From: Callipepla californica brunnescens | Taxonomy: Eukaryota > Chordata > Aves > Galliformes > Odontophoridae | NCBI GenBank assembly: GCA_023055505.1 | Contig: JALIRH010000002.1 | Coordinates: 40,342,233-40,406,232 of the forward strand | DNA: 64,000 bases | Direction of reading: 5' to 3' | Part shown: positions 1-47,322 of the stretch, piece by piece | Numbering within the stretch: position 1 is the stretch's first letter | How the letters are laid out: each line of letters starts with the position of its first letter | Notes under the pieces: model-generated | Database searches by the model: none | What the model saw: only the letters and a program-made list of their open reading frames with translations | Told to the model about the DNA's origin: nothing | Translations under genes and position numbers: made by a program

Positions 1-1010
1 CTGAATAAAGAAAATGGTTGTAAAGGTGTGCCGCATGGATGTTCATGTGCCCGAGAGTCAGGCTACTGAAGAACAACAAAATAACCAACAGGTAGATAGT
101 GCCAACAAAATTTAGGTGGCTCAAATAGACTTGAATTGACAAAACAAGGGTGAATTATTTCTAGCTTGGTGGGCCCATGATACTTCAGGCCATCAAGGAA
201 GAGCTGCAACATATAAGTGGGCTAGAGACCGAAGGGTGGACTTAACTATGGACGCTATTGCACAGGTTATTCGTGACTGTGAAATACATGCCACAATTAA
301 ACAAGCCGAGAAGATAAAACCTCTCTGGGAGGAAGGGCGATGGCAAAAGTAGAAATATGGGGAGGCGGGGCAGGTTGATTACATCACCTTGTCATAAACC
401 CATAATGGTTAAATATTATGTGCTTACCATGGTGGAAGCAAACACTGGGTGGCTTGAAGCATACGCAGTACCCAATGCTACCACCCGAAACACCATCTTA
501 GGTCTCAAGGAACAAGTCCTGTGGCAAAATGGCACTCCTGAAAGAGTTGAGTCAGATAATGGGACTCATTTCAAAAATTCCCTTGTAAAAACTTGGGCCA
601 AAGATTATGGCATTGAGTGGATTTGTCACATTTCCTATCGTGCACCAGCCTCTGGTAAAACTGAACAATACAGTAGGTGGTTAAAAACAATTTTGAAAGC
701 AATGCGTGGAGGAACATTTAAGCACTGGGAGAAGCATTTGGCAGAAGCCACCTGGTTGGTCAGTACTCAGGGATCTATCAACTGTGATGGTCCTGCCCAA
801 TCCAGCTCCCTACCTACAGCAGAGAGAGATAAGGTCCCTGTTGTTCATGTAAAGAGCTTGTTGGGAAACATGGTTTAGTCTTTCCAGTTTCCAGAAAAGC
901 CAAACATCTATATGGAACTGTTTTTGCTCAGGGACCTGTGTCCACTTGGTGATGCAGAAAAATGGGAATGTTCAATGTGCACCACAAGGGAATTTGATGT
1001 TGGGGAAGTG
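1..1010 (+). mobile_element. Endogenous retrovirus remnant: end of pol (RNase H/integrase linker, integrase)
   Basis: Translating the + strand gives a retroviral integrase in pieces. A zinc-binding-like N-terminal part lies at about 167-352, with the paired His of the HHCC motif visible but the second Cys of the CxxC replaced by His. The catalytic core follows at about 357-860, with the first Asp, an S-D-N-G Asp motif and a downstream Glu in the expected DDE spacing. A C-terminal part runs to about 1,010. The frame is broken: an in-frame TAG at 350-352 and a frame change near 385-400 separate the zinc domain and first Asp from the rest of the core, and further stops lie upstream of 167. The wording of the core resembles class III (ERV-L type) avian elements, but the class call is from recognition only. 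The element is cut by the window edge and is non-functional as it stands. Confidence 0.8.
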
Positions 1011-27189: not shown

Positions 27190-28560
27190 AGAGAGTTCTC
27201 TCTTCAAGGAGCTAACTTGAAGGGAGAAAAGGAATTATTTTTACAAGATTCTGACAGTATTGCAAATGAGAGTAAAAAATTTTACAGGAATATTAACAGT
27301 GTAATCTGATTCATATACTGAGATACTCTTAAGCCCATTTTCTGTAACATAAATTTAAGTAGGAGAATATAAAATATAAAATCCATATCAGAATAGAGAA
27401 TATATTGAAAAATGTCTGAAGTTTCCTTTTTTTTTTTCAGATCTTGCCAGTCTATTTTTCTATTATGTTTACTAATAACTGTGTTGAGGTGGATTACTAA
27501 TTGAGCAAGTTACTTAAAAATATTAAAAGCACCCACTGCTTATCAGCAAGAGGAAGTGTACTTAAGATTATTTTATTTGTAGAGGTATATAAGATAGTCT
27601 TAGTGAAAAATGCACTGAAACATATGTGCTGGGAATTTCCTGTGTATGATCATAATTTTGGTTGTTTTTTCTTTTTGTTGTTGTTCATGAGAATGTTTGT
27701 ACTTTTTTATCATTGTCTTTTATGAAATATAACGTTCTAAAGATTGTGTTGGTTTGTTTATTCTGAGGCTTTCTGGAGAGGTATCTCTTGTTTTGATTTA
27801 CAAAAATCAGTTTTTTGTATGCATGATTTCTCAAAAAAAAAAAAAACAAAAACCAGGAAGAGGAAGGGGGAATTGGGCAGCAGTTTGGCTAGGCTGTAGT
27901 GGGATTACTTTTGTTAATTCTCCTAATAGCTCTCCTCTGTTCTTGTTTTAAGAGTAATTTTCCTTGAACTTGAAGTACAGTGGTGTGAAAAACATGAATG
28001 AATGCTATCTCTTGGTGTTAAATAGGAGGCTGATTTTCTTAGGAACCAGCAGTTGTCCTTCGTACCTTTTCCTTTTGTCTTAAAGTTATTATTAGATAAC
28101 TGTCTGAATACTAGAGGTATGAAAGTAATTTTTTGGGAGTACTTAAACTGAAGGCAAAGGTATTTGTAGAACTCCATGAACCTTTTGAAAATGTTTGATA
28201 GCTTTAATTTTCTGCAGCAGTAGATACGGGTTCTCCTGGAAAGTGCTTCTAGTTATGTTTTGGAGTAGGAAAGTAGGCTTTTTCAGTTGGTGTAGAATCC
28301 TTGCATGCTGTTATTCACTCTTGTCACTCAAAAGATACTTTTACTACAGGTGTGACCCCATGTGATTTCATCCACTGTAGGCTTTAATAATAAGGCATAT
28401 GTGATGGCAGGTGGTGGTTTACATTTCCCATGTGCTCGCTTACCATGAGATACGTTTCAGGTCTACTTTGTTCACTTCCTTTCCAAGGAATGTAGCTTAA
28501 CTTCACGGAAAACTTTGGTCAGTATGTTCTTTATAAATGCAGTGTGTTTCTCTGAATATT

Positions 28561-28730
28561 TTTATTCAGGAGAGTAATTGAAAACAAAGTCAGTACATCT
28601 TCCTAAAGTCAACAGAGGGAATAAACAACTTGACAGTTACTGTTAGCGGTTTGCTCTGGGAAGCGCTATGCACGTTCTAAAACTGTTACCACAGTTAGAA
28701 ACTATTCTTAGAGTTTATGGAAATTTTAAT
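28561..28730 (-). terminator. Candidate poly(A) signals of the TTR-like gene
   Basis: On the - strand, ATTAAA at 28,730-28,725 lies about 37 nt after the stop and AATAAA at 28,566-28,561 about 200 nt after it. Which is used is not known. Confidence 0.4.
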
Positions 28731-28766
28731 TTACGCATCTGAATCTCTGTGCTTAATGTTATGCTT

Positions 28767-28874
28767 CTATTCCACTGGCTCGCTGACTGCTGCTGTAGTT
28801 GAGTAAGAAAAGGGACTGAGGACCGTAGTGATGGAGTAATGTCGATAACCAACATCGTTAGCTGCGAATACCAC
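28767..28874 (-). CDS. TTR-like exon 4 (terminal)
   Basis: 108 nt, the same length as TTR exon 4, with acceptor ...tttctctag. It encodes [18 protein letters not shown] and [11 protein letters not shown], with TAG at 28,769-28,767. Confidence 0.92.
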
Positions 28875-31800
28875 CTAGAGAAAGAAACAATATATACAGA
28901 ACAAATGAGAAGTGGTCTCTACATACAAGCCTACGTGTAGATGAAACCACTGTGGTTGCCTGTCTGATCTGACCCCCCAGAGAACTTTGGAAATATCTTT
29001 TGTTGCAGTGTGGTTAGTGATCTTCGAGCTCTTGTTGCACATTTCCGCTGGTTGAGAAAGTTTGGTTAAAAGCATACATGTAACTTAAAGAGTGTTATAT
29101 TTTCTTTGTCGATACTGATAAATGACAAGACTTTCCTTTTATGAGCTACACTGAACACTTCACCTGTGTTTTTTCTAGTTGTTTTTTTTTAGTATACATT
29201 CAACTATCTGAACAGTATTGTTGCTCTTACAAAGTCCTAAATATTGAGAAACAGAATTAAGCAGTGTTACAGCAAATATCTTCTGTCTAAAATATGAAAC
29301 TGCATTTTTTTTAGTACTACTTTAATTTCTAGTATATGCAGGACTGCATTGGTCCTTTGGTCACGATTAATGACCAATGACCTAATGACCTCATTTAGGA
29401 GAGTTATTTACAACATCCCTTTTAACATCTCCTCCATGACTTTGTCTTCTGTCCTTTGATTCCTCTCTCTAGATTAGTAGATTATTTTGTGCTGAGAGAA
29501 GATAGGTGTTAGAGAATGCAAACATTTAAAATAGTTCATTAACACTGTGATTCTGGTGCTCCTTTCAACATTAATTGAGAATAATGCATATGGAAATGGA
29601 AACAGCTGGTAAGAAAAATTCATACCTGTTATTTGAAAGTGAACTGAAGAAAATGCGATCCCTACAAAGATTCTTTCTTAAGAAAGGAAGTTCTTTCATG
29701 CTCTATTAAATTTATGTCTATATTCTAGACTGGAAATTAAAATTATCTTGATGCATAATCAATTCACCTGCATGTTATAGATCTTGCATCTTCTCTTTTA
29801 TTTTTTTTATCACAGAAAGCAGGATTGTCCAGCATTAGCACTTGTTGTCATCTAGAATCAGAATGTTGTCTCTTACCCTTTTTAGGGAGGCAAAAACAAA
29901 GCATGATCTGGGTGTTCGCTACCTTTTCTCCAAAGAGATGTAAAGTAGCTGATGGAGCAGCAATTGCAAACTGTACAGCTATTGGTGCTTACTGATCTGT
30001 CACAGTCCAGCAAACAACTAATACAGATCTGCTGATGTTACTGCAGTGTAGCAACACATGAATGAGCTGATATTGTGAAGGGACAAGTCTGGAAGGAGTT
30101 CCAAACACTGGGGCTGGTTGATACCTTGTTTGGGCCACTCTTACCTAATCTGTTTCTTTTTCCCATGCAGCATTTGGTTGTAAATTGAGGATCCAAGCAT
30201 CCAGGAAACAGTTCACACTGACTTATTTAGAAATATAAACTTTACATGCACCTGTACAAATATTGGGTCCAAAACGCAGAAAAATCATTTTCCCAGCAGA
30301 CTTAGTCCGCCTGTTCTCTCTCAGGTGTCTAGTCCCAGAAAGAATCATAGGCTTCAGCTCAAGGTGAAGAATGGCAAACCTCTTTGCAAGTAATGCACCA
30401 AAGAAAGAGCTCACTGAGAGTTCTGGGGATGCTGGTAACTATGTTTTGTCGTGAGCACGTTGTCAGAATGTTTTGAGGCTGCAGATTTTAAGTGTTAATG
30501 TAAAATACCTTAAAGTGGAAAGTTCAATGTATGTGATTATTAATCAAATCCTAGACGCATTATGTATCTTTATTCCTTGCAACTAACAGACATAATGAAA
30601 TAAATACTTACATCAGCATGTTGATGGAAGGGATTCAAGCCCAGTTTCTTCCAGTAAGAGGCTGTATCGAGCTCAATCTTATATATCCCTGTTACAAATT
30701 GTTCTTTAGTTGTAAGCTTGTGAAGCTCTCCGTTTTCATTGGTTTGTCTGTGTGATGGCAGAAGAATGCACTTTTATATTCTGATTAAAAGCTCAATAAA
30801 AATTCAGCTTTTAGCAATTGAACTTGAGAGATGTTGCGTAGCTTAAGTAATGTCATGAATACCTTCTTTGATCTGGAACAACTTTTGTCCATCTGTATTA
30901 TGGATATCTTACAGATCTTATCTTGGCATTTGCTGCTTCCACAATCAAAACAGTGGGTGGCTGCCTGCCATGTCACTACTCTGCATGGTTTAGGGATGAG
31001 TCAAATGTTGGCATAGTTGTTCATAAGCTCTTGGCAGTGTGCTGGAATTAATAAATGAACTCGCTCACTTTGAAACTTCATTGCTGTAAGCAATGTAAAA
31101 GCTCTGTGATACGCTTAACTGTGTACACAAGTAGGGTCAGCTCTTGTTTTTTCCATAACCATTTGTCTAATTTAAATACGTTGAGTTGTTTTATCAATAT
31201 AAATATTTCTTGTAGTCAGCAGTTTACACTTTAAGTCTGCTATTGGAAGTCATTGTAGGTCAGCTAACAGTGTAGTCTTACAGAATTCTTCGTTGACTGA
31301 TTAGTTGTTTTTCTGTCCTCAAACAACAGATATTTATTTGAGTTAAAAGTGCTATCGGCGCTACCCAAGGGCATAGAAATGGCTTGAAACTTTAGACAGT
31401 GGAACGCCAGCCAAACTGGGAAACCAGAAACAGTATTGGATGCTGTCTCTCAAACATATGTCTTGGTTGAAATCTATGTCTGTGAAATAAGTTACATGGA
31501 ATTAGATTTTTCATTCAGTAGGTTTTCACAAATAAGTTCTGTTAGTGCCTGCGTTGAGTGGTCACAAAGCACTATATAGTGTTCCAGCTGCCAAATCTTT
31601 CATTCATCTGGCGTGCAGAGAAGTCAAGATTGGAATGTTATCTGTGCCATCATCTACTATCACTTAGATTTGTACTTCAGTGTAACTTGTAACTATGAAG
31701 CCTTGCTTCTTGCAGGATGCTCTTTAGTCAGTTGATGGACTTTTTTTTTTGTCCATTCAGATGTATTTTTTCCTTTTAAATAGCTTGATTATTTTTAGAT

Positions 31801-34597
31801 AAGTGTTTAATAAGCTTTCCCAGATAAAACCTAACATGTATTTAGTTGTGAGCAGTTATTCTTGAATCCCTTCCTAGCATTCCATTATTTATAAACTACC
31901 AGGATAGGAGAAGTTGACTTAGTGTTATCACTGCTTTCCATACACCTTCATTTCAACATGAAGCGTGTTTTAAGGCTCTGATTAGCATCCAGCTCTTCAG
32001 CTCTGTGTCTTTAATTAAGCATCTGAGCTCAGACTTGAAAGAATCTGAGCTGAACATCTTCTTAAGAGAAAAATTGCATACATTTCCAGTGAGAGAACAC
32101 GTTTGAGCCTATCTTATTTGTGAAGTGGAAGGCAAATTATTTAATAAGGATGACATGAATAAATAGGGTGATTTTTTTTTTTTTTCCTCTACATGTGCAA
32201 ATATGTGCGACCTTCACTGTAGCTCTGTTTATTAAGGGCACATAGTAGAGCCCTGTTGCTTCTGCCAGCCCACTGGTCTATTATACTGAAGAGCCACTTA
32301 TGTGCAATTTCTTGTGAACTCTCTACAAACCCATCTGTGTCTGGTAAAATTCCTGCAGTATGTCAGCTTTTGCACATGTGAGCCCCATGTCACCTTTTTA
32401 AGGTTGAATATACCATTAGCAGAGTCCTGTGAAGAAAGTTTCAGGTGGGACTTGGCACATATCTTGGATTTCTCGTGAAATAAAGAAGGCTATCAATTAT
32501 GTAGTCTGCATTTAAAACTATTGCATGTTTTGTCTGTAAAGCTGTACAGTAGTAGCAAATGAAAACTCATTTGAAAAGAGGCCGAATAACCAGTAAAGGC
32601 AGAATTTCCACTCACAGTCTTAGTTCCAAATTAAACGAGTCTGCTCGTCTCCCCTGGTAATAATGTAGCACTTCATTGGTGGGCATTAAAAAGAACAACA
32701 AAAGAACAACCCTTTGTAATAAAATTGCATTATAAAACTATTTTGGTAGTTGAAGCTGCAGTACTATTAAAAGACAACCTGCAGCAAATAAAATGTAATT
32801 CTTGTCTTCTCTCTGATTAAGAAAAAAACATGTTGTTTGTTAGAAACTCTTGGCTTTCCCATTGTCTTTCCTTTTTCTCACATCATACTTTGGCAGGACT
32901 TACTTTGAATTTAACAGTTCCCAAGATCCATCTGCAGCTGTTTTATATAATTTAACTGGAACGTTTGGAGCTGGGCTTCCTCGGACTGAATCCAGAATTT
33001 TTACAACAAGAGGGTGCTCGGAACCAGAAGAGTCCTTCAGGTAGGGAGAGAGAATTGTTTATGTTGTAAGAAAGGCAAGTGGTGGAGCATAATAAAGCAG
33101 TAAGGAGTCTTATTTAGCTTTACTGAATATACCACATTCTCAACAGGATTACTGTGTGCTCAGAAATACAGCCTGAAGGCCTCTCAAGGCTGGAGACAGT
33201 GGAGCAAGGGCGGGGGATATCAGCAGCTGTAGGGAGTCAAGTAGTCATGTGCAATATAGAGACACCGTGGCTGTGTGTGAAAATGGCTTTTTGCTTTCCC
33301 TTGGGGATGGATCATATTCGCATCATTTCCAGCATAATTTTTAACCAAATTGTAACCGGAACATGAAAGAAAGAAATTATCAAAGGAAGCAGAAGTGCTT
33401 AAAAATCGGGTAACTTTTCCTCTGTGTTTCAGAGTGGTGATTTGAGCAAAACTTTCTGATTTTGATGGCTCCGGATGTAGTTGTCTTAATGAAGAATTAT
33501 CTTAATCAGCTGTGAACTTGATAACTACCACATGCAGTCTTTCTTTTTTGGATCATATTTTTCAACCCTGGTAGTTATGCATGGTTAGAAGAGAGATTTT
33601 TTTCAGCCATGGGCTGGTGATAGTTTCCCTCCCATCGCATTCATCCCCAAGGCATGATGTTTATGCCCTAATGGTTTACATTCTCTAAAGGAAAGTTGAA
33701 TCAAGGTTTTAACTTTCTATTACCTAAGTCTGTAAGTGAAAAGTGAGCTATGTAGAACGTGCTCGTTAGAGAGCAACTCAAAATAGAATTCACTCATCTC
33801 CATGTAATCATTGGAATATGAATCATGATGTAGATGGTAAAAATTGAGCCCTCTTGTACGTCCTCTCTTTCATTCTATGATGTACTGAATACCCCATGGG
33901 TCAGGAACCCCACTGTGTCAGACAAGTGTATCAGCATGTATCTGCACCACCACCCATGTGAAAAAGTTTGCAACACTGAGTGTGGAGATCCCTTCTTGCC
34001 TCCTGGGAGCAGTAAGGAAAAAAACTAGAAAATACATTACTCCAGCTTGGATTCTCCTCAGCCAATGAAGATAAAACTAATGAGGGAGGAAGTGCTGAAT
34101 ACCACAGGGACCACAGGGAATGCTAGAACTGCAAGAACTTGCCAGAACTGCCTTGAAATCCCTCATGACCGTGTTCATTGTGTTGTAAGGGCTATAGTTC
34201 CTTCTTGAGAAGCCCAAGGCTTCTGTGTAGTGGCTATGGTATTTTTTTCCCTTTCTTTTCTAATGTGTTTTTTCCTGTAGTTGCCAAGTCTGATAGCAAG
34301 TGCTACTTCTCTAATCAGAAAGCTCTCTGTTGAGGAGGAAGAAGAAGCAGAAAGAGTGCAGTAAGAGAGAACTTACTGTCAGCAATATCACAATCAAAAT
34401 AATTGCAATAAAACGGAACATTCTATTTTTCACTTACAGTAATTGTAGCATTTAAGAGAGGAGGAAAAGAAAAAAGGCTGGGATTACATCAGTCTGAAGG
34501 ACTTCAGCTTCAATCCTAAAACACTTACCTGTGGTGCAGCTTCAGGGAACAGTGCCAGGCCAGCTAAGAAAACAAGAAATACGAAGTGAAAAGCCAT
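28767..34597 (-). CDS. Transthyretin-like protein, tandem paralogue of TTR, four exons, intact
   Basis: Four exons on the - strand (34597-34529, 33034-32904, 30747-30612, 28874-28767) join in frame to 444 nt, 147 residues, the length of human TTR. Exon 2 is 131 nt and exon 3 is 136 nt, as in human TTR; all splice sites are GT-AG. The product has a secretory signal ([20 protein letters not shown]) and one transthyretin domain with [28 protein letters not shown] and the C-terminal [16 protein letters not shown]. About 65% of residues 10-127 match the neighbouring TTR. In human numbering it keeps K15, L17, E54, S117 and T119 of the hormone channel but has S106, T108, T109, V110 and A121; Cys10 is His. 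It lacks the YRGS tail of HIU hydrolase, so it is TTR family proper. Probably a secreted tetrameric carrier; the ligand is unknown. Confidence 0.92.
30612..30747 (-). CDS. TTR-like exon 3
   Basis: 136 nt, identical in length to TTR exon 3, with acceptor ...catcacacag and donor GAT|gtaagtattt. The first ten donor-side intron bases equal those of TTR. It encodes [17 protein letters not shown] and [12 protein letters not shown]. Confidence 0.92.
32904..33034 (-). CDS. TTR-like exon 2
   Basis: 131 nt from acceptor ...ccctacctgaag to donor AA|gtaagt. It is 9 nt shorter than exon 2 of the adjacent TTR and equal in length to mammalian exon 2. It carries K15, L17 and the VRGSPA turn. Confidence 0.9.
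34529..34597 (-). CDS. TTR-like exon 1 (signal peptide)
   Basis: 69 nt, 23 codons, the same length as TTR exon 1, with the shared MAFH start and FLAGL core. The donor is CAG|gtaagt, phase 0. Confidence 0.9.
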
Positions 34598-34653
34598 TGT
34601 GGCTATCACTAGGAAGTCTCAGAGGCAGCAAGTAGAACTGATGAGATCTCTGA

Positions 34654-34661
34654 TTTTTATA
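34654..34661 (-). promoter_or_regulatory. TATA box of the TTR-like gene
   Basis: TATAAAAA on the - strand, 57 bp upstream of the ATG. This closely matches the position of the TATA box in TTR, and the intervening leader (…CTGATGAGATC…) is also similar between the two genes. Confidence 0.7.
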
Positions 34662-34720
34662 TCAAGGCCTCTAAACTAAGGCTGCTTATCAATTAAAAAA
34701 GTGCATCTGACTTTGAACAT

Positions 34721-34790
34721 GCTGATTCTTACTGTTTACTTAGTAAATAATGAGAAAATAAGTAACCCATACAAACATGAACCTTGTCTG
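34721..34790 (-). promoter_or_regulatory. FOXA/HNF3-like sites and conserved upstream block of the TTR-like gene
   Basis: A gctgattct block followed by TGTTTAC (34,733-34,739) and ttagtaaa aligns with the TTR promoter at 43,773-43,801. Further out, ataagtaac and acaaacatga blocks align with 43,883-43,910. FOXA sites at this position are known to drive liver and choroid plexus expression of mammalian TTR; use here is inferred. Confidence 0.55.
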
Positions 34791-34799
34791 TGAAAATAC

Positions 34800-36390
34800 A
34801 TCTATTCAGTTAATGCCTGCGGGAGCAGTGAATGTTGCCTAGCTTAACTGCAGCAATCTGTTTTCTTGCAACCAGTGTCTACTGTTCTTGTTGAATACTA
34901 CTGACAATAGTGCTGTTGAAATCTCATGAAGTTAAGAAAAATAGGATTTTCTTGTAAACTGAATTTCCATTTCATAGAGAATATCTGTGATTATAGCGTG
35001 GCATAATCAACTTATCCATGCTGATCTAGAGCTGCAATTTCTGTGCAGTAAACATATAATATGTGACAGCATTTTAAGTTGTTACATTCATTTTTCCTTA
35101 CATTCTGTACCACTTAAGAACTTTGCCTGCACAACTGTAAGTCAGCCCTCACCAGAAGTCTCTTTTTCACTTTAGGTAAATATTATTTCCAGGAATTAGA
35201 TTTTTACACCTGTGGATGCCTACATGCACAGTGAGGACATTAACTTATTTTTTTAATGACTGCAATAGGAATATATTTACATTTTGTTCAGAAGACTGCT
35301 CACAGTCCACTGCAAAGCAAGCCTACTGGTTTTCAAGCTTCAGGAATCGCACAGTTCCATGAAATGGCAATCATGCTTTAAGACGGGCACTGTTTTGAAA
35401 CTGTTTGCACTGTCTGCTAGAATTGTGTAACTGTGGTAGAGTCCAAAAATCAGGGAGAAAAGTAATCAAATAGCAGAATGTTAAAGGCTTCTGTAACCTT
35501 GTGAATTCTCTTGGTATGGGGTCATCCCAGCGGGCTCTTATGTGGAGATTAGCTCCAAGGTCAGTAGCAGATTAGTGCTGATAATTTTTGAATGGCCGAG
35601 TTCAGTCATGTTCTACATTATTTCTGTAATCCTATTAAACAATTCTCTGCTTCTGGATATTGAAAATACAATCAGCTATCATTCTATAGAAATTACTGCC
35701 AAAGTCTTCAAAGGTTTGGGTCCATTTATCAACAATGTTATTTGAATGACAGTCACTACACAATCTACCTTGTCCTTCTAAACATTTGAAGAGAATATTA
35801 AGGTAATTCTACCATTTTAAGAATCTTTTTTTATGGACAGAAATTTGACTTACTAGGGGTAGCCAACTCTATTAAAGAACAGTTTACAATGATGGTAACT
35901 GAAATGACTTCAGAACTTCCTAGATTCAGTGAGCAGCATTCCTTCCTCATCAAATCAACAAAGTTTGCCTTGAAATTTTAAAGCTACACAGATTTTAGCT
36001 CTACATTTGTATATCATAAGAGACTTTCTATGTTGTTTGTGTTGCTGCTAGGTATTCAGTATTTCTCCTATTTACCCTGTGTTTCCTAATCAATAGTGGG
36101 ATCTTATCTTCTGTGTGTAAACAGAATAACATGAATGAGTTTCATGCTTTGAGTACACTTACCTGACTTTTTTCTAAGATAGCAGAACTCTAACCTTATT
36201 TAGAGCCAGTGCATCTGCTGATATTTTTTTTAAGACAATGGGGAAAGCTAACAGCACCAAATCAAGTGTTAATTTACTTCACTGTGCCACACACTGTTTT
36301 CAGATGTTCTTTGTACTTGAAAGCAAATCATAATTCTTTAGAACATAATAAAACTTCACCAATAGAATCAGAACTGTTTTAAAGAAGTTA
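34800..36390. other. Intergenic spacer between TTR-like promoter and TTR 3' end
   Basis: About 1.6 kb of AT-rich sequence with no recognised gene or major repeat. It must hold any regulatory sequence particular to the TTR-like copy beyond its proximal promoter. Confidence 0.5.
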
Positions 36391-36393
36391 CAT

Positions 36394-36399
36394 TTTATT
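36394..36399 (-). terminator. TTR: TTR poly(A) signal
   Basis: AATAAA on the - strand about 155 nt after the TAA stop, a 3' UTR length close to that of other vertebrate TTR mRNAs. Confidence 0.7.
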
Positions 36400-36551
36400 G
36401 ACTTGTCTGAATTTTTGCCAGGTTACAAAATGAAAAAAAAAAAATACTAATGTAGCAAAAGGATATGCATTAGCAATAGGAAAAAACCTTCCTCCTAAAA
36501 ACCTATAATAGTCCTAGCAGAGGAGGGTATTTGTCTACTGACAGTACTCCT

Positions 36552-36659
36552 TTATTCCTGGGGATCACTGACAACAGCAGTTGTTGAGTAAGAGAAAGGA
36601 CTGAGAAGAGCAGCGATGGTATAATGGCGGTGGCCAGAATCATTAGCAGTGAACACCAC
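36552..36659 (-). CDS. TTR: TTR exon 4 (terminal)
   Basis: 108 nt after ...ctcttttccag. It encodes [19 protein letters not shown] and [16 protein letters not shown] with a TAA stop. Confidence 0.96.
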
Positions 36660-39600
36660 CTGGAAAAGAGAAAACTTGTAATCATGAGGAACAACATGTA
36701 TTCAAATCTACTTTGACATTTATAATTAGGAAGTATACTTGAGTTGCTGTGAACTGCTTTGCAAGTTCTGTTCAGGGGTTTCACCCTTGTTATGCTCACC
36801 ACCCTTGTAACCCTGAAGACTGAGAAATTAGTGGGACTTGGACTTATGTATGTGAGGGGCTTACCTGCAGTGGAGCTCAGTAGAGACATCTAGCACCTGA
36901 ATCATGTACATTCTTTTTTGTGACATGGAGTAGGAGGATGAGAGGTTGGTAACTCAACCAACCAATAAAAAAAACTGAGGTGAAATGCTCTTACATCTGT
37001 GTCCAAACAAGGCAGGAGGTGATGATGAGTCAGTTCTTAATGCAAGGACTGAGTTGCAAGGCTTTCAAGAGCAGAAAGACCCTTGTCCTCAAAGAATTCA
37101 TATTTGCTCTTCTCCCAGTTACCTCCTGGAAATTGGAATACCTAGCTCCCAGGAAAATGCCATCAACTGGGTTAAGTTCCCACTTTCTTTGTCTTTCTTT
37201 AGTGTATTGCTGGAACTACCTTCAGAACCATGGTGTACTTCCTGGATGTGAGGACTAGAGAGTTCATCCGTCCTAGCCAGTCTCTAAGCTGATGGAATGT
37301 GAGGACCGTGGGTTACAGTTACCTCTTACTTATATTCATTAAACTCTGTCCACTTCCCAGGACAGTGGAGTGACTTACAGTATCAGAACTGCAGAATCAC
37401 CAAGGCTGGAAAAGATCTCCTCATCCAGTTCAACCATCCACCTACCACCAATATTTCCCCACTAAACAACGTTCCTTAGTGCATCTAAATGTTTCTTGAA
37501 CACCTCTGGGGACAGTGACTCAACCAGTTCTCTGTGCAGTCCATTCTAGCACTTGATCACACTTCAATTTCCTAATATCCAACCTGAACCTTCCTTGGCA
37601 TGACTTGAAGCCATCCCCTCAAGTCCTGTTGTTAGTTACATGGATCAAGAGGCCAACACCCACCTTGTCATAACCTCCCTTCAGCTATACTGCTACAGCT
37701 AAGGACAGCATCCTCAACAACCTATCTGGAACAATCACAACTATGTTTCTCTGAGTACCTTTTGAGGTGAAGATCTCTTAGGTCTCATCCGTATTTTCAT
37801 GATAGTCTGTTTGACCTAAATTGCTCTACTTGTGTGACCTGGTGTAGGGAACCTGCTTTGACAGGGGGGTTGGACTAGATGATCTCTTGAGGTCCCTTTC
37901 AATCCTTATGTTTCTATGATTCTACTTGCTTCTGTGGTTTCTATAGAACTGGGCCTAAGTCATTACTTTTTTTCAGCTTTCCACAGATCTTCAAGAAATT
38001 GTGATTTAGTGTGTTTTACAAAGCAGTTCTGTAGCTGTTCCAGAACACTGAGTAGAATGTTCAGAGAAATTTAAATTAAATGGCAAAGTAAATTAAATTA
38101 AATGGCAAAGTAAACCTCTAGAATGTAAACACTTTTTTTTTATATATAAAGTATGGTCTAAATGTCATACTAAGAAAATGTTGGGCTGAATGCAAAGGAA
38201 GGCATGTGACATATTTATACCACTTGGCTGATAATGGAGTTCGGATATCTGTGAAACTTTTCCTGTCCCATTATGGGTTTTTTGTTTATCTTTCAACATC
38301 TCTTTTTTTTTTTCTTCAGGACTGAGCACTGTTTAAGTGCGTACCAAAAAGAACAGTCTTTTTTCTGTAATTACCAATTCCACTAGAATTCAGGGGAGTG
38401 GTGTGATGGAAATCCTCTTGATTAAAAAAGCTCATTTTCTATAAATTGAGTCCTTCCAAGTCCCTGTATTCCTTCAGCAATTATAAAAACAGGTAACATC
38501 CTTTTTTCCTTTTTTTTTTCTTTCTTTTTTTCTTCTTTTTTTCCTTTTTTAAAAAATTATTTCTTTATTTATTTTAACGGGAATAGCTCTACTTCGGAAG
38601 AGCTGTGTGTGTTCATACTTCAAGGGAATTTGGATACTTCCTCTAGCTAGGCTGGCTGTACACTGCAATATTTACGCAATGTGATGTGACAGCGATCTGT
38701 TTTACTGCTCTTTCAGTGCATTTGTTGTGTCCAGCTGATACCACTACATGGTGTATAGGTTATTAGGTGTGTTCTCAAATACTTACATCAGCATATTCAT
38801 GGAATGGGGAAAGGCCGAGTCCCTTCCAGTAAGAGCTGGTGTCAAACTCAACCCTGTATACTCCTTCTACAAACTGTTCTTCTGTTGTGAGCTCATGGAT
38901 CTCACCATACTCTGTGGTTTTCCTGCAATGATAAAATAGCTACATAAATATTTTATGTTTTCATTTAAATGCTAGGCAGAAGCAGTCAGTGTTGAGTGTT
39001 AAGTAGCACAGATGCTACACAGCTAACTTTGACATGAGTGATTTCTTATCATGTGAAATAATTCCCTCCTGTGTAATGTGTATTCCCATATTGCAGAACC
39101 TGTCTCTGCTGTCAACTGATTCATGTACATCACAAATGAAACTTGATTGGCTTTTTTTTTTTTTTCTTTTTGGTCATTTTTATTGCTATGGCAGGATTAT
39201 ACTTGAGGTCCCAGTTTTAATATCATGTTTAAATTGTACCAAGTGCTCTCTAGAACCGAATGTCAGTGGCTTAGGAAAAGGATTGTCATGATGAAAGGCA
39301 AGATGCCAAATCTCAAATTATAATTAGAGAAAAGAGATTTTAGTGGAAAATTATTTCATTCATTAGATATTAACACTGAGACTATAGATTTTTCATCTAA
39401 ACACTGACAGTTTTTTATGTGACCCTGAATAGTAATGTCTAGGGATGGCAATTTAGCGTCACAGGATTTTGGTAATTTGAATTACAGTGCAGCGGTCAGA
39501 GAGCAGGGACCACTTCTATTGGATGCCATATAAATGAGAAATAGGAATTCCCAGCTCAGAGAGTCTATTTATTCAGTTTGTAACTAAATACCGGGTGAAT

Positions 39601-41476
39601 GAAATCCAGAAACAAAAAGAAATATAGCTGCTTTTGCACAGTACAGTCTGAAAAAGACCAAGCTTTGTATGACAGCTGTTTAAATATTTAAGTACCGAGC
39701 TACTAAACCCTTTTTATGCCTCTCCTTTCATACTTTTCACCCAATCTTTATATCTTATTTTACTTTTTCTACTAAAATATTTATACAATATGACATTTCA
39801 TGATCATTTGATGTGTTTGAAGGACAAGTAAAACCATGTCGTGAAGAACTATTTACCAAACCAATGAAAAGGAGTAACTTTCTGTGAAGAGGAATGAAGA
39901 GCATTAGGAGGGAGAGAGAGGGGGGAGAACACAGTGACCTACAGCTTCTTAACAGAGAAAGAAGCCATTATGCTATCACTGCTTTTCTTTCCCTGCCTCC
40001 TCCATCTCAGTTGTCTTCTTCAGTTACTGATAGTGAATAACAAAAAGATATGATCTTCTTAAATTAAGAATGTAGAAAATACTGTGGTAATTTTCAGATT
40101 ATCATAACATTCCAACTCTAGCACTTTGAAGACTGGCCAAAGCATCACAGTACAAGTCTAGCACAGGTGAAATCAGCTGTATCCGGGGGAGACCAAACCT
40201 GTAGAGAAGCCAAGCCCTGACTGAAACATGGCTCCAGGCAGTCTGTGAGGAAATTTTCTTTTAGTTCAATTAGTACTTCCAACCTTAGTCTATCTTGCCA
40301 TAAGAAAAGGCTGTAGGCAAAATGCTGAAGAATTCATTGATGAGAGCTCATGTGTCCTTGAACTTGTGAAACAGAATTGCTGAAATTCTGCAGAAATGTT
40401 TACAGTGCAAGTCAGCAATAAGGTATACCTGCTTAGAAGTTAGATAGTCAAGACACAAACCAATTAAAAACAAAAATGGTGTCTGACTGAAAAATATTTG
40501 GGTAACAAATTTTAGACACTGAATTTTAAAAGTGAAAATGAGACTCTCCTTCACTGCCAAGAGTTCATGGCACATTTTAGCTTATGTGGGGTAGGCGTTC
40601 AGTGCCAGTGATCTCACAAACAAAACATGTAGGGCATCACATACAACAGGACAGATGTGATCCTGGATGGGATTAGCACAAGGCAGAGGACTCGCTGCCT
40701 TTGGCCCTGCAAGCAAAATGGTTCAGGTCATTCCATCTAAGGAGCACTTGTATTTCTGTCAGAGCATTTGTATTTATGTCAAATAAGCTGCGACTTTTTT
40801 TTTACTTCAGTGATTCACAACCTGGATCACATGAAAAATGTCTGATGAATGGAACTCTTGAACTCCGCTGTAAGGCCTAGATTTCCTAAAACACGTGAGG
40901 AGTAAGAAGGTCAAAGCTAGTCATGGGAGCAGTTCATATAGAACACAGATCACATGCCTTCCACATCTCTGTGCCCTCTGGCCTTCTTCAGAGGGTGTCT
41001 CCACTGGGCTTATGCTTTTTGTGCATATTATGGTTGGACTAATTTTGAAATAGCACTCTTAATAAAATCAACTGTTGTTATGGTAAATTTCTCCTTGCTT
41101 TTTAAAAACTAATATCCACATTCATCAGTCAAAAGGTGTGTTCACTTAATTTCCTAAAACTTGTTAGAAAAACTGAGCAACAACAAAAAAACAACCAAAC
41201 CCAACCGAAATCTTATGGACAGCTGTGCAAAAGGGAACTTTTACACTTCCTAGCATATGCATGTAGAACTTCAGAATATTAACCTGTCAGCTTTAGTTAC
41301 AGATTGTGTTCCTTGATTTTCAGCATATTTATTACAGATAAACAGTGCTTTTCCAGAATAAGAACATTGCAAATAAGTGTGAAAATCTATTTGGTTAAGA
41401 TGTTATCAAGGGAGAGGTCACAATGTTTACCAGCAATAAAAATGGTGGTTTAATGTTCCTTTATTGCTTCCCCCTG

Positions 41477-41517
<41 letters not shown>

Positions 41518-43654
41518 TTTTTCTTGCCTATGGTTAATCTCCTCATTTATTTATTTAAATACTTTGAATACATAATTTGATTTTTCTCAGACTTCCTCTG
41601 TGACCTAAAGTGTCAAAAGAACTTGGCTAAGAACGACAGTTTGTCTCCTTGAGCTTCTTAAGAGCAGCCTAGCAAACTGAATGATAGTGTTACATTCAGA
41701 ATGTGATGGTTGTTAACGCTGATGTTGCATTTATCTTTCTATGGTGTAAATTGTATTTCCTGTTATATCTTCCAGACCAATTGATGAAACATGCAAAATA
41801 ATCTGGATTTCCTAACAATAGCACAAATATTCATTAAGAACAAAACAATAATGTTGTCTCCACTTCCCCTGAAAGCAACCTGTCAAGTTTTAATTAGAGT
41901 TTGTCTGGTTTTCTCCTTGATGTATATAAGTCTTTTCCAAGGGTAATTTGTTCCTATATTACCATTCAGCACTTGGGAATGAAGGTGTCTGTTTCTCTTC
42001 TACTTTCCTGTTCCTTTTCAGAGAGGAAAGTTTTCTTGTTGTGTTTTGAGGTTTATAAAATAAACCCTTCAAATGGAGAAAGGTCTATCTCTCCTTGCAG
42101 TCTTTTCCATTTCCTTCTGCAGCTTTTATGTAAATCATGCTATAAAATCCTACTAAAAGAGCTGGATTCTCTTCTGGCTGCTGAAATGCTTGTCATTCTA
42201 TACTTGAACATCCTGTTGCTGCTAGAAACTTCTCAATTAAAAACCCACTTTAGTGAGTTGCTACATTGAAACTCAAATTGATGAGGTATTCAGGCATTTT
42301 AATTTTACAAAACTGTATCTCTCTGATTTTTCTCTTTTTATAGAAAGGAAAGATGGCATTGGATTGATGCGTAAAATAAGTGTTTATTAAACCTACTCTG
42401 CTACAAAGGTACGACAAGAATCTTAAATATTTTTGTTTGCAATTTGTTTGTATGTCAGTGATAGGTATGTTCCTCTTGAATCTGATGGGTTTTAGACCAG
42501 AATTCATGTGCTGTTAATGATGGTGTGATGTGATAGAAAACTTACACAAACAAAAAGCATTAGCAGAGCTCCATTCCCTTTATTTCTCTTTTGTTTACTC
42601 AAGGCACTTTGAAAAATGTCTCAGTAGGATGACATAAATAACTCACCCAGTAGCAAAGTCCTGCCAGCTTCCATCTGCAGCCTTTTTAAAGACTTTAACA
42701 GCCACGTTAGCTGCAGGACTTCCTCTGACTGCATCCAGCACTTTCACCATGAGAGGGCATTTGGAATCAACAGAGCCATGGGAGACCTGGGGGAAAGCAG
42801 GAGAGGTTGTAAAGGAGCTGTTCACTTGCCCTGCAAAAACCTTCTTTCAAAGAGTAGATGGATTTGTATTGCAGTATTAATGCTGACTTGAAGTTCTTTG
42901 CCAAATGGTGTTCAAGGCCAGTCCCCAAGCTTTTGTTTTGTACCCCACACTTTCTTACAGAATAGTATCTTTGATGTTTATACACTTTATTTTACTCACA
43001 AACATACACACACTGTTTTATAACTATTTTGAGTTGCACATTGCCCTGGAAAAAATGTTATAGAGAAAAAAAATACTTTTTTTAATGAGATCACAAATAA
43101 TAAAGTTATATTAACGAGATAACAAATAATAAATAATAAATTTATTATAAGTGCAGGCAGAGTATGTCAGCCTAGGCAACAACGAGAAATACCTGCAACA
43201 TCTGTAAGGGTGAAAGGATGTTGTTTCCTTAACCTTTGCTGTGCTATAATACATTCTTAGTCATGCTTTAAAAATATTCTAATTTCTTTAGAGAAGCACT
43301 TGTTTGGTGAAGAAGCTGTCTCTGTTCTGAAGATACAGGATGTGAGTTGCAAGCTGACAGGAAAATGAAAGGTCGTATCTCCTATACCCCAGACCCTTTT
43401 GTAGTATCCTAAAAATAGATAGGTAAATGGTGAAAGAAAATGTAAAAAAAATGGTAGTAAAATAATTCTTCAGGACAGCTTGATGGTTGCAGAATTTCGT
43501 GGTTGAAGATGCTAGTCATCTAGAAAACACTGATCATCCTTCTAGAAATGATTGATTTGAATAATAAAATAAAAAAAAGACTCACCAGTGGTGCAGCTTC
43601 AGAGAGAAATACCAGTCCAGCTAAGAAAATAAGAAGAGTAGAGTGAAAAGCCAT
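36552..43654 (-). CDS. TTR: Transthyretin (prealbumin), four exons, complete
   Basis: Exons 43654-43586, 42786-42647, 38922-38787 and 36659-36552 join in frame to 453 nt, 150 residues. The product is the secreted homotetramer that carries thyroid hormones in blood and cerebrospinal fluid and binds retinol-binding protein. The signal peptide ([20 protein letters not shown]) is followed by an N-terminus beginning [14 protein letters not shown]. Exon 2 starts 9 nt upstream of the mammalian boundary, giving the longer, more hydrophobic N-terminus known in birds and reptiles, which favours T3 over T4. Channel residues K15, L17, E54, T106, A108, A109, L110, S117, T119 and V121 are all canonical, as is the NDS sequon at 98-100. 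The gene converges with B4GALT6, as expected from vertebrate synteny. Confidence 0.97.
37383..37690 (-). mobile_element. CR1 fragment in TTR intron 3, reverse orientation
   Basis: It reads as complemented CR1 3' UTR ('gcagaatcaccaaggctgga...', 'cctaatatccaacctgaacc', 'cttgaagccatcccctcaag'), moderately diverged. Confidence 0.8.
37838..37923 (+). mobile_element. Short CR1 3' terminus in TTR intron 3
   Basis: 'ggttggactagatgatctcttgaggtccctttcaa' followed by ttatgtttctatgattct is the sense CR1 end with its terminal repeat. It lies tail-to-tail with the previous fragment. Confidence 0.85.
38071..38114. repeat. Perfect tandem duplication of a 22-bp unit
   Basis: Positions 38,071-38,092 are repeated exactly at 38,093-38,114 in TTR intron 3. 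Confidence 0.9.
38500..38578. repeat. Polypyrimidine (T/C) low-complexity tract
   Basis: Almost uninterrupted T with scattered C, 200-300 bp from TTR exon 3 inside intron 3. No function is evident. Confidence 0.8.
38787..38922 (-). CDS. TTR: TTR exon 3
   Basis: 136 nt between ...tcattgcag and gtaagtattt. It encodes [17 protein letters not shown] and [16 protein letters not shown]. Confidence 0.96.
41479..41514 (+). repeat. 36-nt poly(A) run preceded by AATAAA
   Basis: An unbroken run of 36 A residues in TTR intron 2, with AATAAA at 41,435-41,440, 39 nt upstream on the same strand. The arrangement is like the tail of a processed retrocopy, but no source transcript is recognised. Confidence 0.6.
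42647..42786 (-). CDS. TTR: TTR exon 2
   Basis: 140 nt after ...gctttcccccag. It opens with codons for VSHGSVDS and continues through [17 protein letters not shown] to WQDFATG; the donor is GG|gtgagt. Confidence 0.96.
43586..43654 (-). CDS. TTR: TTR exon 1 (signal peptide)
   Basis: 69 nt ending CCA CTG|gtgagt, phase 0. It encodes the signal peptide and the first three mature residues. Confidence 0.95.
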
Positions 43655-43710
43655 TCTGCTTGCTGTTACTGAGTTGTGGTGCCAGCAGCTAGGAGCTGAT
43701 GGGATTTGGG

Positions 43711-43718
43711 ATTTTATA
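43711..43718 (-). promoter_or_regulatory. TTR: TTR TATA box
   Basis: TATAAAAT on the - strand 57 bp upstream of the ATG, implying a leader of roughly 25-30 nt. Confidence 0.75.
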
Positions 43719-43772
43719 CCCAACTCTACAAGAAAACAGGCTGCTTATTGGGTGCCCATATGACTACAAATC

Positions 43773-43912
43773 TGCTGATTCTGATTATTTGCTTAGTAAA
43801 CAGTCCAATCCTAGAGACAGTCCATGAATAACGCTGCCATTGCAGTCAATGGAAGAACTGCAGGATCACTAGAGTAAAGAGAATAAGTAACAGACACAAA
43901 CATGACCCTTGC
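43773..43912 (-). promoter_or_regulatory. TTR: TTR proximal promoter: FOXA/HNF3-like site and conserved distal block
   Basis: TATTTGCTTA at 43,786-43,795 matches the FOXA/HNF3 consensus. An ataagtaac...acaaacatga...ccttg block lies at about 43,883-43,914. Both recur in the same order upstream of the TTR-like gene. Confidence 0.55.
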
Positions 43913-45630
43913 CTGGGGAGATTAAACTTGTAGAAAGCCCTCCACAAAGTAATGTAAGCAGCCTTTCTTTGCCTAGAAGTCCAACCAGTTCTAGGAGATC
44001 TTCCCTTGCCCTCAGGTTGTGCACGATAGTGTCCCACTGTCTTCTTTCTATGCGCTTTGTGTTTCTTCTCACTTTATTTAATATTCTTCAAAGACTAACT
44101 CCTGAATATCGATGTGGATTAAGTATGAGTGATAGAGTTTGTTGTCTAGCGCTGGCAGCATTAATGTTTCATGCTTGGAGACAGATTCCCAGGTCTTATT
44201 CTATTTGTTTAAAAGGAGCAGTGTTTCCTTTTGAAACCTAATGTAGAAGTTCCTACGGATTCATCATGCCTAACTTTCAGTCAGACACTGAAGCTTCCTC
44301 TTAGAGAGGAGAGGAGAGGCCTAGAATGATCTGTCCCCTTGGGAAGATAGAGGTCTAAGTAAAGTGAGAGGAGTCCTCTCTTTCCCCATGGCACACCAGA
44401 ATAAGCCAAGCCAACTAGCAGATATCAGTAGCTTAAGATTTAATTGTCCAAGTCTTATCCTGGCAGATATTGTTATGCTCTGCAGTGTATATTTAGACAA
44501 GAGTAGTTTCAGGGGTGAATTTGGCCCCAGTGTAAGTTGGAAAAGAGATGGCTGGTGGAGGAATATGCATGCGATAGCTGGCTTTCTTCAGCTGCATTAC
44601 ATAAAATTTGTCTGTATTGTCTGTGCTCATTGAATGAGAAAGAAATTTTCCTTTGTCATTTCCTTATTCCCATGTCCTAAAGAACTCTGACTTTATACTT
44701 CTGCTCTTTGAAGGTGATGAGCCTAGTTCTCATTTCACAATATTGTAACAAAAAACTTCTACCTCCTAACTTCTGCAGGATTATGGCCAAGACAGAGTTT
44801 ACAGACAGTATTCTCCAGAAGCTTTCATGCTTTCAGACAGCTTTGTGTAGTTTGTTCTCTCAGCAAAGTTGTCTTTTTTTTTTTTTTTTTTGGAAAAAAA
44901 TCTATATTACAGTAATCTCCTGTACTGAGATCAAAGTGCCCTTCGGACTTGCAGCAAAGCAAGCTAATACGTAGGTAGCATTCTATGTTCAATTTGCATG
45001 CATAGAAGTTAGTGAAAGGTGACAAGCAATAACAAATCATGCTGCATCCTGGTGCTTGTGAGCTCTCTTCAGGCACTGGAGAGGTAAATACTGCTCTTAG
45101 ATCAGTGCTTTATTTGCTTACTTCACTATCTGTGGTTTGCAAGTACTTCTCTGAAGCAGTAAAACTTTGTACAACAGGAAGATAAATGATCTGTGCTTCA
45201 TTTAAAGTCGACCGTCCTCTCTTTTTTACTATCTGCTCTTCTGCAAGGAAAAAAATGTCTAGGAGCTAATGAGTCTGTTGTAACTTAGAATTGCCTTCTT
45301 ATGGGAGAATGACTTCAAAAAATAATTATTTTCACTAGTTTTTACTGCTAGATAGGAGTTTCTGAAAAATCAAGTCTACAATGACAGAATATTTCATCTG
45401 TCTGTGGTATCTATGTTAGTTTCCTCTTTCAAAACATTAACCTTTTGGTAGCCAGTTTTCAAAGCAGATGATAAGCATAAAAAACTCCACACATTATTTT
45501 TGTTTGATTTTTTTTCCTCCTCCTTCCCTTGCAGGTTTTTTTCTTTGTTTGTTTTGTAGTTGTTGGTTTGTTTTTTGTGCCCTCCCCATCCCATCCATAA
45601 TTTAAATAGGGATTCTTTGACTATTAGCTG

Positions 45631-45688
45631 GGCTACCATTCTGAAAGGAAAATAAACTCTGTGTGTTTGTGATTCTCTGTGAAAAGGT
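45631..45688. repeat. Dispersed 58-bp repeat, copy 1
   Basis: Matches 47,323-47,380 at 51 of 58 positions in the same orientation. It is not a CR1 piece I recognise. Confidence 0.6.
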
Positions 45689-47322
45689 AAACGTCTTTAA
45701 TATTTCTCCAATCTGGAATGACAGTCAGAGCTTCCTCCTTTCACTGTCAGCCTCAACGTGTTAATACAAATACTGCAAGTGAAATAGTTTTCTTAAAATC
45801 ATGGGAAGATCTGGGAATGTGGAATAGCCAGCTTATTGAAGTATTAGCTAAGAGAAAAAGGCATCGTTTGGAGTCAGAAGAAATGATGACACCATTAAAA
45901 GATAGAGATTCCTACTTGGCTGGATTTAAATGGAGAAGGGAGGGGTGTTCTTAAAAGACATGGCTGTAAAATTGCTATCAACCAGGTTGCGTGTGTGTAT
46001 GTGCTGTGTTTGACATTTGCATCCAGCTGAGCTCTAACATTGTATAGGATGCACCTACCCCAGTGAATGAAATCTTACTACTTTGGGAAGAATCAGAACA
46101 CTTGATTATAGTAGGGAGAAGGAGAAAGGAGATGAGTAACTGCTGAGCATCTGCAAGTGATGACAGTCTGTTGTCTATTGTTTCTAAACCTTCTCTCTAC
46201 AATGGGAGTCTGAAGTTTATAAGCCGAATATTTTCAGCTTATAAGGGAAATGAAAAGAAGCTAAGCATTGAGGAGCAGGCAGGGCTAAAAGCAAACTCAG
46301 ACTTCTGAAGCAGTAGGGAAAAACACAAAACTGGTCAACTCTTAGAGCCTCTGCCAGCAGGGTACGTGCCACAAAAAAAGGGGTACAACACAGAGCAGGG
46401 GGCAGTAGCATAAAAGCCCTATTGTAGGGAAAGAGTAAATGAGATCACTGAAAACACCTCAAAAAGATGTTTAGGAATCCTGGTGTGAAAGAAAAAGAAG
46501 GGTTATATAGCTAACATGGAGACAGAGAGAGGCTATTTGGGGCTGAGGGGCACCCAAAACCCAGAAGAAGGGAGTAGCATGCAGAGTGATTAGAAAGCTG
46601 AAGGAGAGGAAGGCAGAGTCCCTTGTGTACATAGTAACCATGGTCTTATGGAAGCCAAGAGGTATGAGACCCCCCAGCTGTGGAAAAAAAATAGATAATC
46701 CCCAAGTATGTAAATACTTTAAAGCTTATCTGAATTCCAAATCAACTGAAGCTCATCTCTGAAGAACTAGAACAAATGCCTATTTTTACAGAAAGCGTGT
46801 TCCCTGCCTGGAAGCTTTACAGCATTCAGTTCAAGAACAAACATGTCCCACTAATACTTTTGTTTACATCAAGGCTTTTTCCAACTGCTTTACAATATAC
46901 CTTTCTCTCACTTCTGCACAGTCTCATGCAGTTAAGTTTATTTTACTTAGATAATCTGTTTACTCTCTGCTCCGTTCTCTTCTATTTCATTTTACTTAGA
47001 AAGCTAACTGTTTCTACATGGCATAACGTTCAGGCTGGTGCCTGAACTATAAAGTACAGTAAGTTACTCCTCTGAGAGGAAATGGAGTGATAGATGGTAA
47101 TCTGGATGAATGTCCCTAGCATTTTTTCTATAAAAGTACTGATTTTCTGAGCTCCAAAAAATGCATTCTACAGTACAGAGATTTCAGTATGGCACTTTTC
47201 CCCCCCACACACACACTTTTCTGGAGTTACCCTCCATTAGTACTTAGAGGGAAAGAGCTAAGATTTACCTCTTGACTAAGTTTGCCTGAGCATTCTGAAC
47301 TAGAGTTGAGAACTATTAACAT

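What the first reader, a model, noticed from the sequence alone, without database searches (positions are those of the whole stretch)
28767..34597. Complete second transthyretin gene in tandem with TTR
Most vertebrates are described with a single TTR gene. Here a second four-exon gene sits 2 kb downstream of TTR, on the same strand, with an open frame of 147 codons, a signal peptide, clean GT-AG sites in the same phases, exons 1, 3 and 4 of the same lengths as TTR, its own TATA box and candidate poly(A) signals. About 77 of 118 aligned mature residues match. No stop, frameshift or lost splice site is visible, so selection has probably kept it. I know of no established name or function for it.
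Basis: partly seen in the sequence, partly recalled or inferred. Interest (0 to 1): 0.9.

Follow-up and report, generated by a model that had tools for sequence, protein, structure and literature searches.

The report
Second transthyretin with rewritten hormone pocket
Birds and turtles carry a second, long-kept copy of the thyroid-hormone carrier transthyretin beside the usual one, and its hormone-binding pocket, nearly frozen in the ordinary copy, has changed more than the rest of the protein.

Summary
Confirmed. On the minus strand, 2 kb downstream of TTR, lies an intact four-exon gene (69/131/136/108 nt; 147 aa; all GT-AG). Orthologues, some already auto-named "transthyretin-like", are listed for many birds and several turtles and form one clade. 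A duplication within birds is rejected (AU p 8e-5). The best tree with denser outgroups puts it in the turtle-bird stem, weakly. Besides the exons, only promoter blocks match between the two gene regions: TATA and a FOX-like element at similar offsets.

New here: ten thyroid-hormone-pocket sites named for human TTR average 0.8 changes in TTR but 9.5 in this paralogue (other sites 3.5 and 4.2; 0.0007 of random site sets reach that; 0.0018 in a rerun). Residues 108/109/110 are AAL in TTR and most turtle copies, ATL in ostrich and duck, TTV here, VVV in several songbirds. Human A108V/A108I block T4 binding and stabilise the tetramer. The N-terminus has the mammalian length.

Best reading: a functional secreted TTR-fold carrier with a re-specified ligand site. 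Expression and ligand are untested; no paper on it appeared in ten searches.

The parts
34529..34597 (-). TTR-like gene, exon 1 coding part (signal peptide, 23 codons)
   Evidence: donor CACAG|GTAAGT
32904..33034 (-). TTR-like gene, exon 2 (131 nt; 9 nt shorter at its 5' end than TTR exon 2)
   Evidence: acceptor CTACCTGAAG|GAC, donor TCAAA|GTAAGT
30612..30747 (-). TTR-like gene, exon 3 (136 nt)
28767..28874 (-). TTR-like gene, exon 4 coding part with TAG stop; encodes pocket residues S106 T108 T109 V110 S117 T119 A121 (human numbering)
34656..34661 (-). TATA box of the TTR-like gene (starts 64 bases upstream of ATG, as in TTR)
34680..34689 (-). ATAAGCAGCC element shared with the TTR promoter
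34733..34749 (-). FOX-like element (TATTTACTAAGTAAACA), matching TGTTTACTAAGCAAATA of TTR; label recalled, not from a tool
34753..34790 (-). upstream promoter block, 84% identical over 38 bp to 43878-43915 of TTR (HNF4-like, label recalled)
   Evidence: E 1e-5
28561..28566 (-). candidate poly(A) signal AATAAA, 200 nt after the stop
43586..43654 (-). TTR exon 1 coding part
42647..42786 (-). TTR exon 2
38787..38922 (-). TTR exon 3
36552..36659 (-). TTR exon 4 coding part

Best explanation
The gene (called TTRL below) is an ancient tandem paralogue of TTR, at least as old as the turtle-bird split. It makes a secreted protein with the transthyretin fold that very probably still assembles as a TTR-type tetramer. 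Its proximal promoter is homologous to that of TTR, so it is expected in the same places (liver, choroid plexus or yolk sac). What changed is the central ligand channel: thyroid-hormone residues that are nearly frozen in TTR have been replaced repeatedly in TTRL while the scaffold was kept. The mechanism I commit to is a carrier whose ligand site was re-specified: TTR-like in most turtles, altered at residue 109 in ostrich and ducks (ATL), and further altered at 108 and 110 in separate bird lineages. In the window's species (T108, T109, V110, A121) T4/T3 binding is probably weak or changed, and the tetramer either carries another small ligand or serves as a stable TTR-type subunit. Shown: gene structure, orthologues, age bound, constraint, promoter homology, pocket divergence. 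Inferred: expression, tetramer, loss or change of hormone binding.
For: Intact gene. Orthologues in birds and turtles, one clade: 99/91, 100/99. Bird-only duplication rejected, dlnL 40.7, AU p 8.1e-5. Both proteins are listed with contigs of equal length in Platysternon, Carettochelys, Phasianus and Ifrita, and are fused in a Falco gene model. Ten pocket sites listed in PMC5364509: 9.5 changes per site in TTRL (other sites 4.2) against 0.8 in TTR (other 3.5); 0.0007 of 20,000 random ten-site sets reach the TTRL value; 8 of 10 pocket sites never change in the 56 TTR rows. Rerun on 70 TTRL rows, P0017 included, on a tree without pocket columns and column 85: 9.9 against 4.6, 0.0018. Entropy: 0.005 in a hand-listed passerine set, 0.014 in the rest. 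Scaffold sites 87, 95 and 120 have no change within 56 TTRL rows. AlphaFold model of the Colinus orthologue: mean pLDDT 83.6, PDB TTR chains matched with TM up to 0.96 by target length. Promoter local score 90 against 33+/-5.6 in shuffles, 0 of 1000. Human A108V/A108I show no T4 binding in a competition assay and greater stability (PMC5364509, passages).
Against: No transcript, protein or binding data were available. Pocket change could be plain relaxation: with proteins only I cannot separate relaxed from positive selection. The pocket idea came from looking at these same sequences, so the test is not independent of them; only the site list is external. Summed side-chain volume at seven inner sites is not increased in the window's copy (-23 A3 against TTR, because V110 and A121 are smaller) although it is in 44 of 56 TTRL rows, so simple pocket-filling is not the story in this species. 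Most turtle copies keep AAL, so hormone binding may persist there.
Confidence: 0.6

Rival explanations
1. TTRL is still a thyroid-hormone carrier but with a mammal-like preference for T4 over T3. [quoted passage not shown]
For: Residues before P11: 30 in 50 of 61 counted TTRL rows and in the window copy, 33 in the window's own TTR, 30 in the eutherian Mandrillus. PMC4324301 section 5 (read): N-terminal length tracks T3/T4 preference; chicken TTR Kd 12.3 nM T3, 28.8 nM T4. PMC4347424 passages: Ala109Thr and Ala109Val listed among human variants with higher affinity for thyroid hormones. Ostrich and duck TTRL are A108 T109 L110.
Against: Position 108, whose change to V or I abolishes T4 binding in human TTR, is not alanine in the window and in 33 other of the 75 TTRL rows with a letter there; 106 is lysine in 18 rows; E54 is replaced in 36 of 79.
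Confidence: 0.2
2. TTRL has no ligand of its own. It is a co-expressed partner that joins TTR in mixed tetramers, or a redundant copy kept only for secretion and fold, and its channel drifts.
For: Promoter homologous to that of TTR; residues such as F87 and A120 unchanged; the stabilising human variants in PMC5364509 act at the same site.
Against: A gene kept since the turtle-bird split with no selected function is unlikely; changes at 109 and 110 stay mostly hydrophobic, which argues against free drift.
Confidence: 0.15
3. The gene is decaying or an annotation or assembly artefact.
For: Some lineages look rapid or odd: Coturnix TTRL has a long branch (0.32); turkey and Excalfactoria entries are hybrids with TTR exons.
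Against: Intact in the window; orthologues listed from many species and contigs; GT-AG splice sites and homologous promoter.
Confidence: 0.03

Closest known systems
Transthyretin (TTR) of birds and reptiles
   Same: Fold, exon plan and phases, signal peptide, core promoter, scaffold residues; neighbour B4GALT6 (name and synteny recalled)
   Different: 64% identical in the window (94 of 147); pocket residues 13, 106, 108, 109, 110 and 121 changed; Cys10 replaced and Ser85 replaced by Asn (I used these two residues to sort rows, so their perfect association there, with only 3 of 149 rows in neither class, is the finding, not their frequency); N-terminus three residues shorter
Mammalian TTR (T4-preferring)
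   Same: Same number of residues before P11 (30 in Mandrillus) and the same 147-aa total
   Different: Not its nearest group in the best tree; pocket residues differ
Human TTR variants A108V, A108I, A109T, A109V
   Same: Same positions hit: V108 in 17, V109 in 46 and T109 in 15 of 75 TTRL rows
   Different: In TTRL they come together with changes at 13, 17, 54, 106, 110 or 121
5-hydroxyisourate hydrolase (HIUase, transthyretin-like protein, URAH)
   Same: Same Pfam family
   Different: No C-terminal YRGS (HIUase signature, recalled); signal peptide and TTR exon plan; no sign of the enzyme tail

Membership tests
Transthyretin family (PF00576), vertebrate TTR branch | Pfam Transthyretin match above cut-off | tested here: met
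   81.4 bits against cut-off 25.3
Transthyretin family (PF00576), vertebrate TTR branch | four exons, signal peptide in exon 1, phases as in TTR | tested here: met
Transthyretin family (PF00576), vertebrate TTR branch | groups with amniote TTR rather than with fish TTR | tested here: met
   amniote TTR plus TTRL against 13 fish rows 99/98
TTR as thyroid-hormone carrier | conserved hormone-pocket residues (13, 15, 17, 106, 108, 109, 110, 117, 119, 121) | tested here: not met
   window copy differs from the window's TTR at six of ten: 13, 106, 108, 109, 110 and 121
TTR as thyroid-hormone carrier | binds T3 or T4 | not testable with these tools
   needs recombinant protein
TTR as thyroid-hormone carrier | homotetramer | not testable with these tools
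   fold predicted only as a monomer; sites 87, 95, 120 unchanged
TTR as RBP4 carrier | RBP4-contact surface | not tested
   S85N and S100A/V changed in TTRL; that these contact RBP4 is recalled
HIUase (URAH) | C-terminal YRGS | tested here: not met
   the window copy ends EPVE; YRGS occurs in one fetched protein only, P0265, which is not a TTRL row

The most novel reading that the evidence does not exclude
Birds evolved a dedicated non-thyroid transthyretin: a liver/choroid-expressed TTR tetramer, kept since the turtle-bird ancestor, whose hormone channel was re-tooled lineage by lineage for other small ligands or for a filled, hyper-stable core. This repeats in nature the A108V and A109T changes known from rare human variants.
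Probability: 0.4. Interest if true: 0.8.

Novelty: new variant of a known kind. Interest (0 to 1): 0.62.

Why it matters
TTR is one of the most studied plasma proteins, and its evolution is told as a single gene shifting from T3 to T4 carriage (PMC4324301, section 5 read). A second gene with a TTR-type promoter in birds and turtles changes that story: if it is expressed, measurements on whole bird or turtle plasma, CSF or egg may mix two proteins. It also offers a natural experiment in which the pocket, not the scaffold, varies. The substitutions coincide with positions that control T4 affinity and tetramer stability in human TTR, so the paralogue is a ready set of evolved variants.

Tried and rejected
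Recent duplication or gene conversion between the two window genes: rejected. Introns share no match better than a reversed-sequence control (both at best E 0.071); besides the four exons only promoter stretches match. Bird-only origin: rejected.

Dating to before the squamate or mammal split: not decided. A first tree with one fish outgroup put TTRL outside all amniote TTR; adding 12 fish rows and dropping 8 long-branch TTRL rows moved it to sister of turtle+bird TTR at 68/84, and the older placement is not rejected (AU p 0.24).

Pocket-filling as a general rule: not kept for galliforms, since the window's inner-site volume sum is slightly smaller than in TTR. Crocodile, squamate or mammal TTRL: none among the 120 rows listed of 346 hits or the 120 listed of 127, which is weak evidence of absence; the same holds for chicken, whose copy may sit inside a 90% cluster.

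Controls that came out less clean: in the promoter comparison, of 580 tiles of the minus strand the three best are TTR's own, the next two are the TTRL promoter (86 and 73), but a tile in TTRL intron 3 (30230-30011) scored 68. On the rerun tree without pocket and diagnostic columns the class label needed two changes, not one. The passerine set was hand-listed, partly by K106.

Literature: ten searches listed no paper that I could see to be on this paralogue, judged by titles and abstract openings; only open-licence PMC is held. Searches returned nothing; some searches were aimed at human variants and the promoter; one search listed 40 of 10,929 papers, none of them holding the key term.

Full report
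What is there. The window is bird DNA: its TTR protein is 98% identical to Pavo TTR and the paralogue is 97% identical to a Colinus virginianus protein. A beta-1,4-galactosyltransferase-type gene (B4GALT6, name recalled from the frames seen; not searched) lies on the plus strand to about 24.3 kb. TTR and the second gene lie on the minus strand. The second gene has exons 34597-34529, 33034-32904, 30747-30612 and 28874-28767, coding lengths 69/131/136/108, and 147 codons. TTR has 69/140/136/108 and 150 codons. All introns are GT-AG in matching phase. TTR and paralogue share 82 of 127 aligned residues from position 21 on, with dN 0.25 and dS 0.96-1.0.

Is it real and kept? Searches of 5.8 billion proteins list orthologues in many birds and several turtles (120 rows listed of 127 and of 346). 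Of 149 rows examined (147 proteins plus the two from the window), I sorted 82 into the paralogue class (not Cys at 10, Asn at 85), 64 into TTR (Cys at 10, not Asn at 85) and 3 into neither. By the names given, the named paralogue rows are birds or turtles. On a tree of 137 rows built without the pocket columns and column 85, this label needs two changes (shuffled mean about 46), so the sorting follows descent, with at least one row out of place. Database names are 'transthyretin-like', 'Transthyretin', 'TTHY protein' and others. In Platysternon, Carettochelys, Phasianus and Ifrita the two proteins are listed with contigs of the same length, and a Falco entry fuses TTR exons 1-3 with paralogue exons 2-3, so the tandem order looks old. 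Window against Platysternon: 95% (TTR, 142 of 150) and 69% (paralogue, 102 of 147). The paralogue evolves faster but is far from free.

Age. On 57 chosen rows (of the 149) the paralogues of birds and turtles are one side of a branch (99/91), and joining bird TTR with bird paralogue is rejected (dlnL 40.7, AU p 8.1e-5). With 13 fish outgroup rows and eight paralogue rows left out (Coturnix, Excalfactoria, Galbula, Charadrius, Apus, Colius, Tyto, Pelusios), the paralogue clade (100/99) is sister to turtle+bird TTR, support 68/84, not starred. A duplication older than the amniote TTR groups is not rejected (AU p 0.24). The simplest reading is a duplication in the common stem of turtles and archosaurs. 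No crocodilian copy was seen in the capped lists.

Regulation. In a comparison of 36300-46500 with 28000-36300, outside the exons only two stretches match at E below 1e-4: one running from exon 1 through the core promoter (43575-43800 with 34518-34747) and a 38-bp block above it (84%). TATA boxes start at -64 in both; the FOX-like double site is at -148 (TTR) and -152; ATAAGCAGCC is at -94 and -92. The local alignment score is 90 against a shuffle mean of 33.1, sd 5.6, 0 of 1000 as high; among 580 tiles of the whole minus strand the TTRL promoter tiles score 86 and 73, one unrelated tile 68, the next 49. Transcription-factor labels are recalled. A review says that hepatocyte nuclear factors control TTR in liver (PMC9405911, passages). 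Expression in liver and choroid plexus is therefore the natural prediction, not shown.

The pocket. That the pocket differs I first noticed by eye in these sequences; the ten positions counted are those listed in a passage of PMC5364509: 13, 15, 17, 106, 108, 109, 110, 117, 119, 121. Of the 82 paralogue and 64 TTR rows, 56 and 56 were used. Dropped were rows with gaps, identical rows, the fish row P0119, the fused or aberrant rows P0002 and P0056, and P0017, whose exon 4 is TTR-like and would have lowered the paralogue's contrast. On trees built without the pocket columns, mean parsimony changes per pocket site were 0.8 in TTR (other sites 3.5) and 9.5 in the paralogue (other sites 4.2). In 20,000 random ten-site sets 0.0007 reached the paralogue value. 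Eight of the ten sites never change in TTR; among the 42 TTR-invariant sites no draw of 50,000 reached the pocket value. The two fastest of 114 sites in the paralogue are 13 and 108. A rerun with 70 paralogue rows, P0017 included, and 66 others gave 9.9 against 4.6 (0.0018) and 1.0 against 3.7. Entropy gives the same picture in a hand-listed passerine set (0.005) and in the rest (0.014).

Pattern across lineages, residues 108-110: AAL in Platysternon, Emydura, Carettochelys and Chelonoidis (AVL in Pelusios); ATL in ostrich and Aythya; ATV in Penelope; TTV in Phasianus, Colinus and the window; AVL in several Neoaves; VVV in ten rows, songbirds, most of them with K106. In human TTR, A108V and A108I extend into the channel, show no T4 binding in a competition assay and stabilise the tetramer (PMC5364509, passages). 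Ala109Thr and Ala109Val are listed among variants with higher affinity for thyroid hormones (PMC4347424, passages). The window's seven inner sites taken together are slightly smaller in volume than in TTR (-23 A3), so 'filled pocket' fits songbirds better than quail.

The N-terminus. [quoted passage not shown] The paralogue shows the same kind of change: its exon 2 is nine nucleotides shorter at the 5' end than that of the window's TTR. Fifty of 61 counted paralogue rows have 30 residues before P11, as in the eutherian Mandrillus, against 33 in the window's TTR. Seven of the 61 have 32.

Fold. An AlphaFold model of the Colinus orthologue (mean pLDDT 83.6, pTM 0.73; below 50 only at residues 18-27) matches PDB transthyretins with TM up to 0.96 by target length. 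Residues 87, 95 and 120 do not change within the 56 paralogue rows.

Conclusion. A functional, ancient TTR paralogue with a conserved scaffold, a homologous promoter and a re-specified channel is the best reading (0.6). A T4-preferring second hormone carrier (0.2) and a ligand-free partner subunit (0.15) are the main rivals. All make clear binding predictions.

Noticed in passing
window 318-878 (+): Open stretch matching the retroviral integrase core (PF00665, 52.5 bits): an endogenous retroviral fragment, far from the gene.
   Followed up: partly
window 57436-57879 (+): Reverse-transcriptase fragment (PF00078, 35.1 bits), CR1-like by recall.
   Followed up: partly
P0017 (Excalfactoria chinensis) and P0063 (Meleagris gallopavo): Entries that join paralogue exons 1-3 (or 2) to TTR-like exon 4 (or 3-4), against the chromosomal order: gene conversion, an unequal-crossover hybrid, or a gene-model error.
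   Followed up: no
P0062 (Coturnix japonica): Paralogue with an unusually long branch (0.32) and pocket INI at 108-110, perhaps decaying or rapidly adapting in Old World quails.
   Followed up: no
window about 43801-43877 (-): About 75 bp in the TTR promoter that the paralogue's promoter lacks.
   Followed up: no
P0076 (listed as Clostridioides difficile, 628-bp contig): An animal TTR protein filed under a bacterium as hydroxyisourate hydrolase: probably contamination.
   Followed up: no
P0073 (Platysternon megacephalum): A plain turtle TTR protein is named 'polycomb complex protein BMI-1' in the source: annotation error.
   Followed up: no
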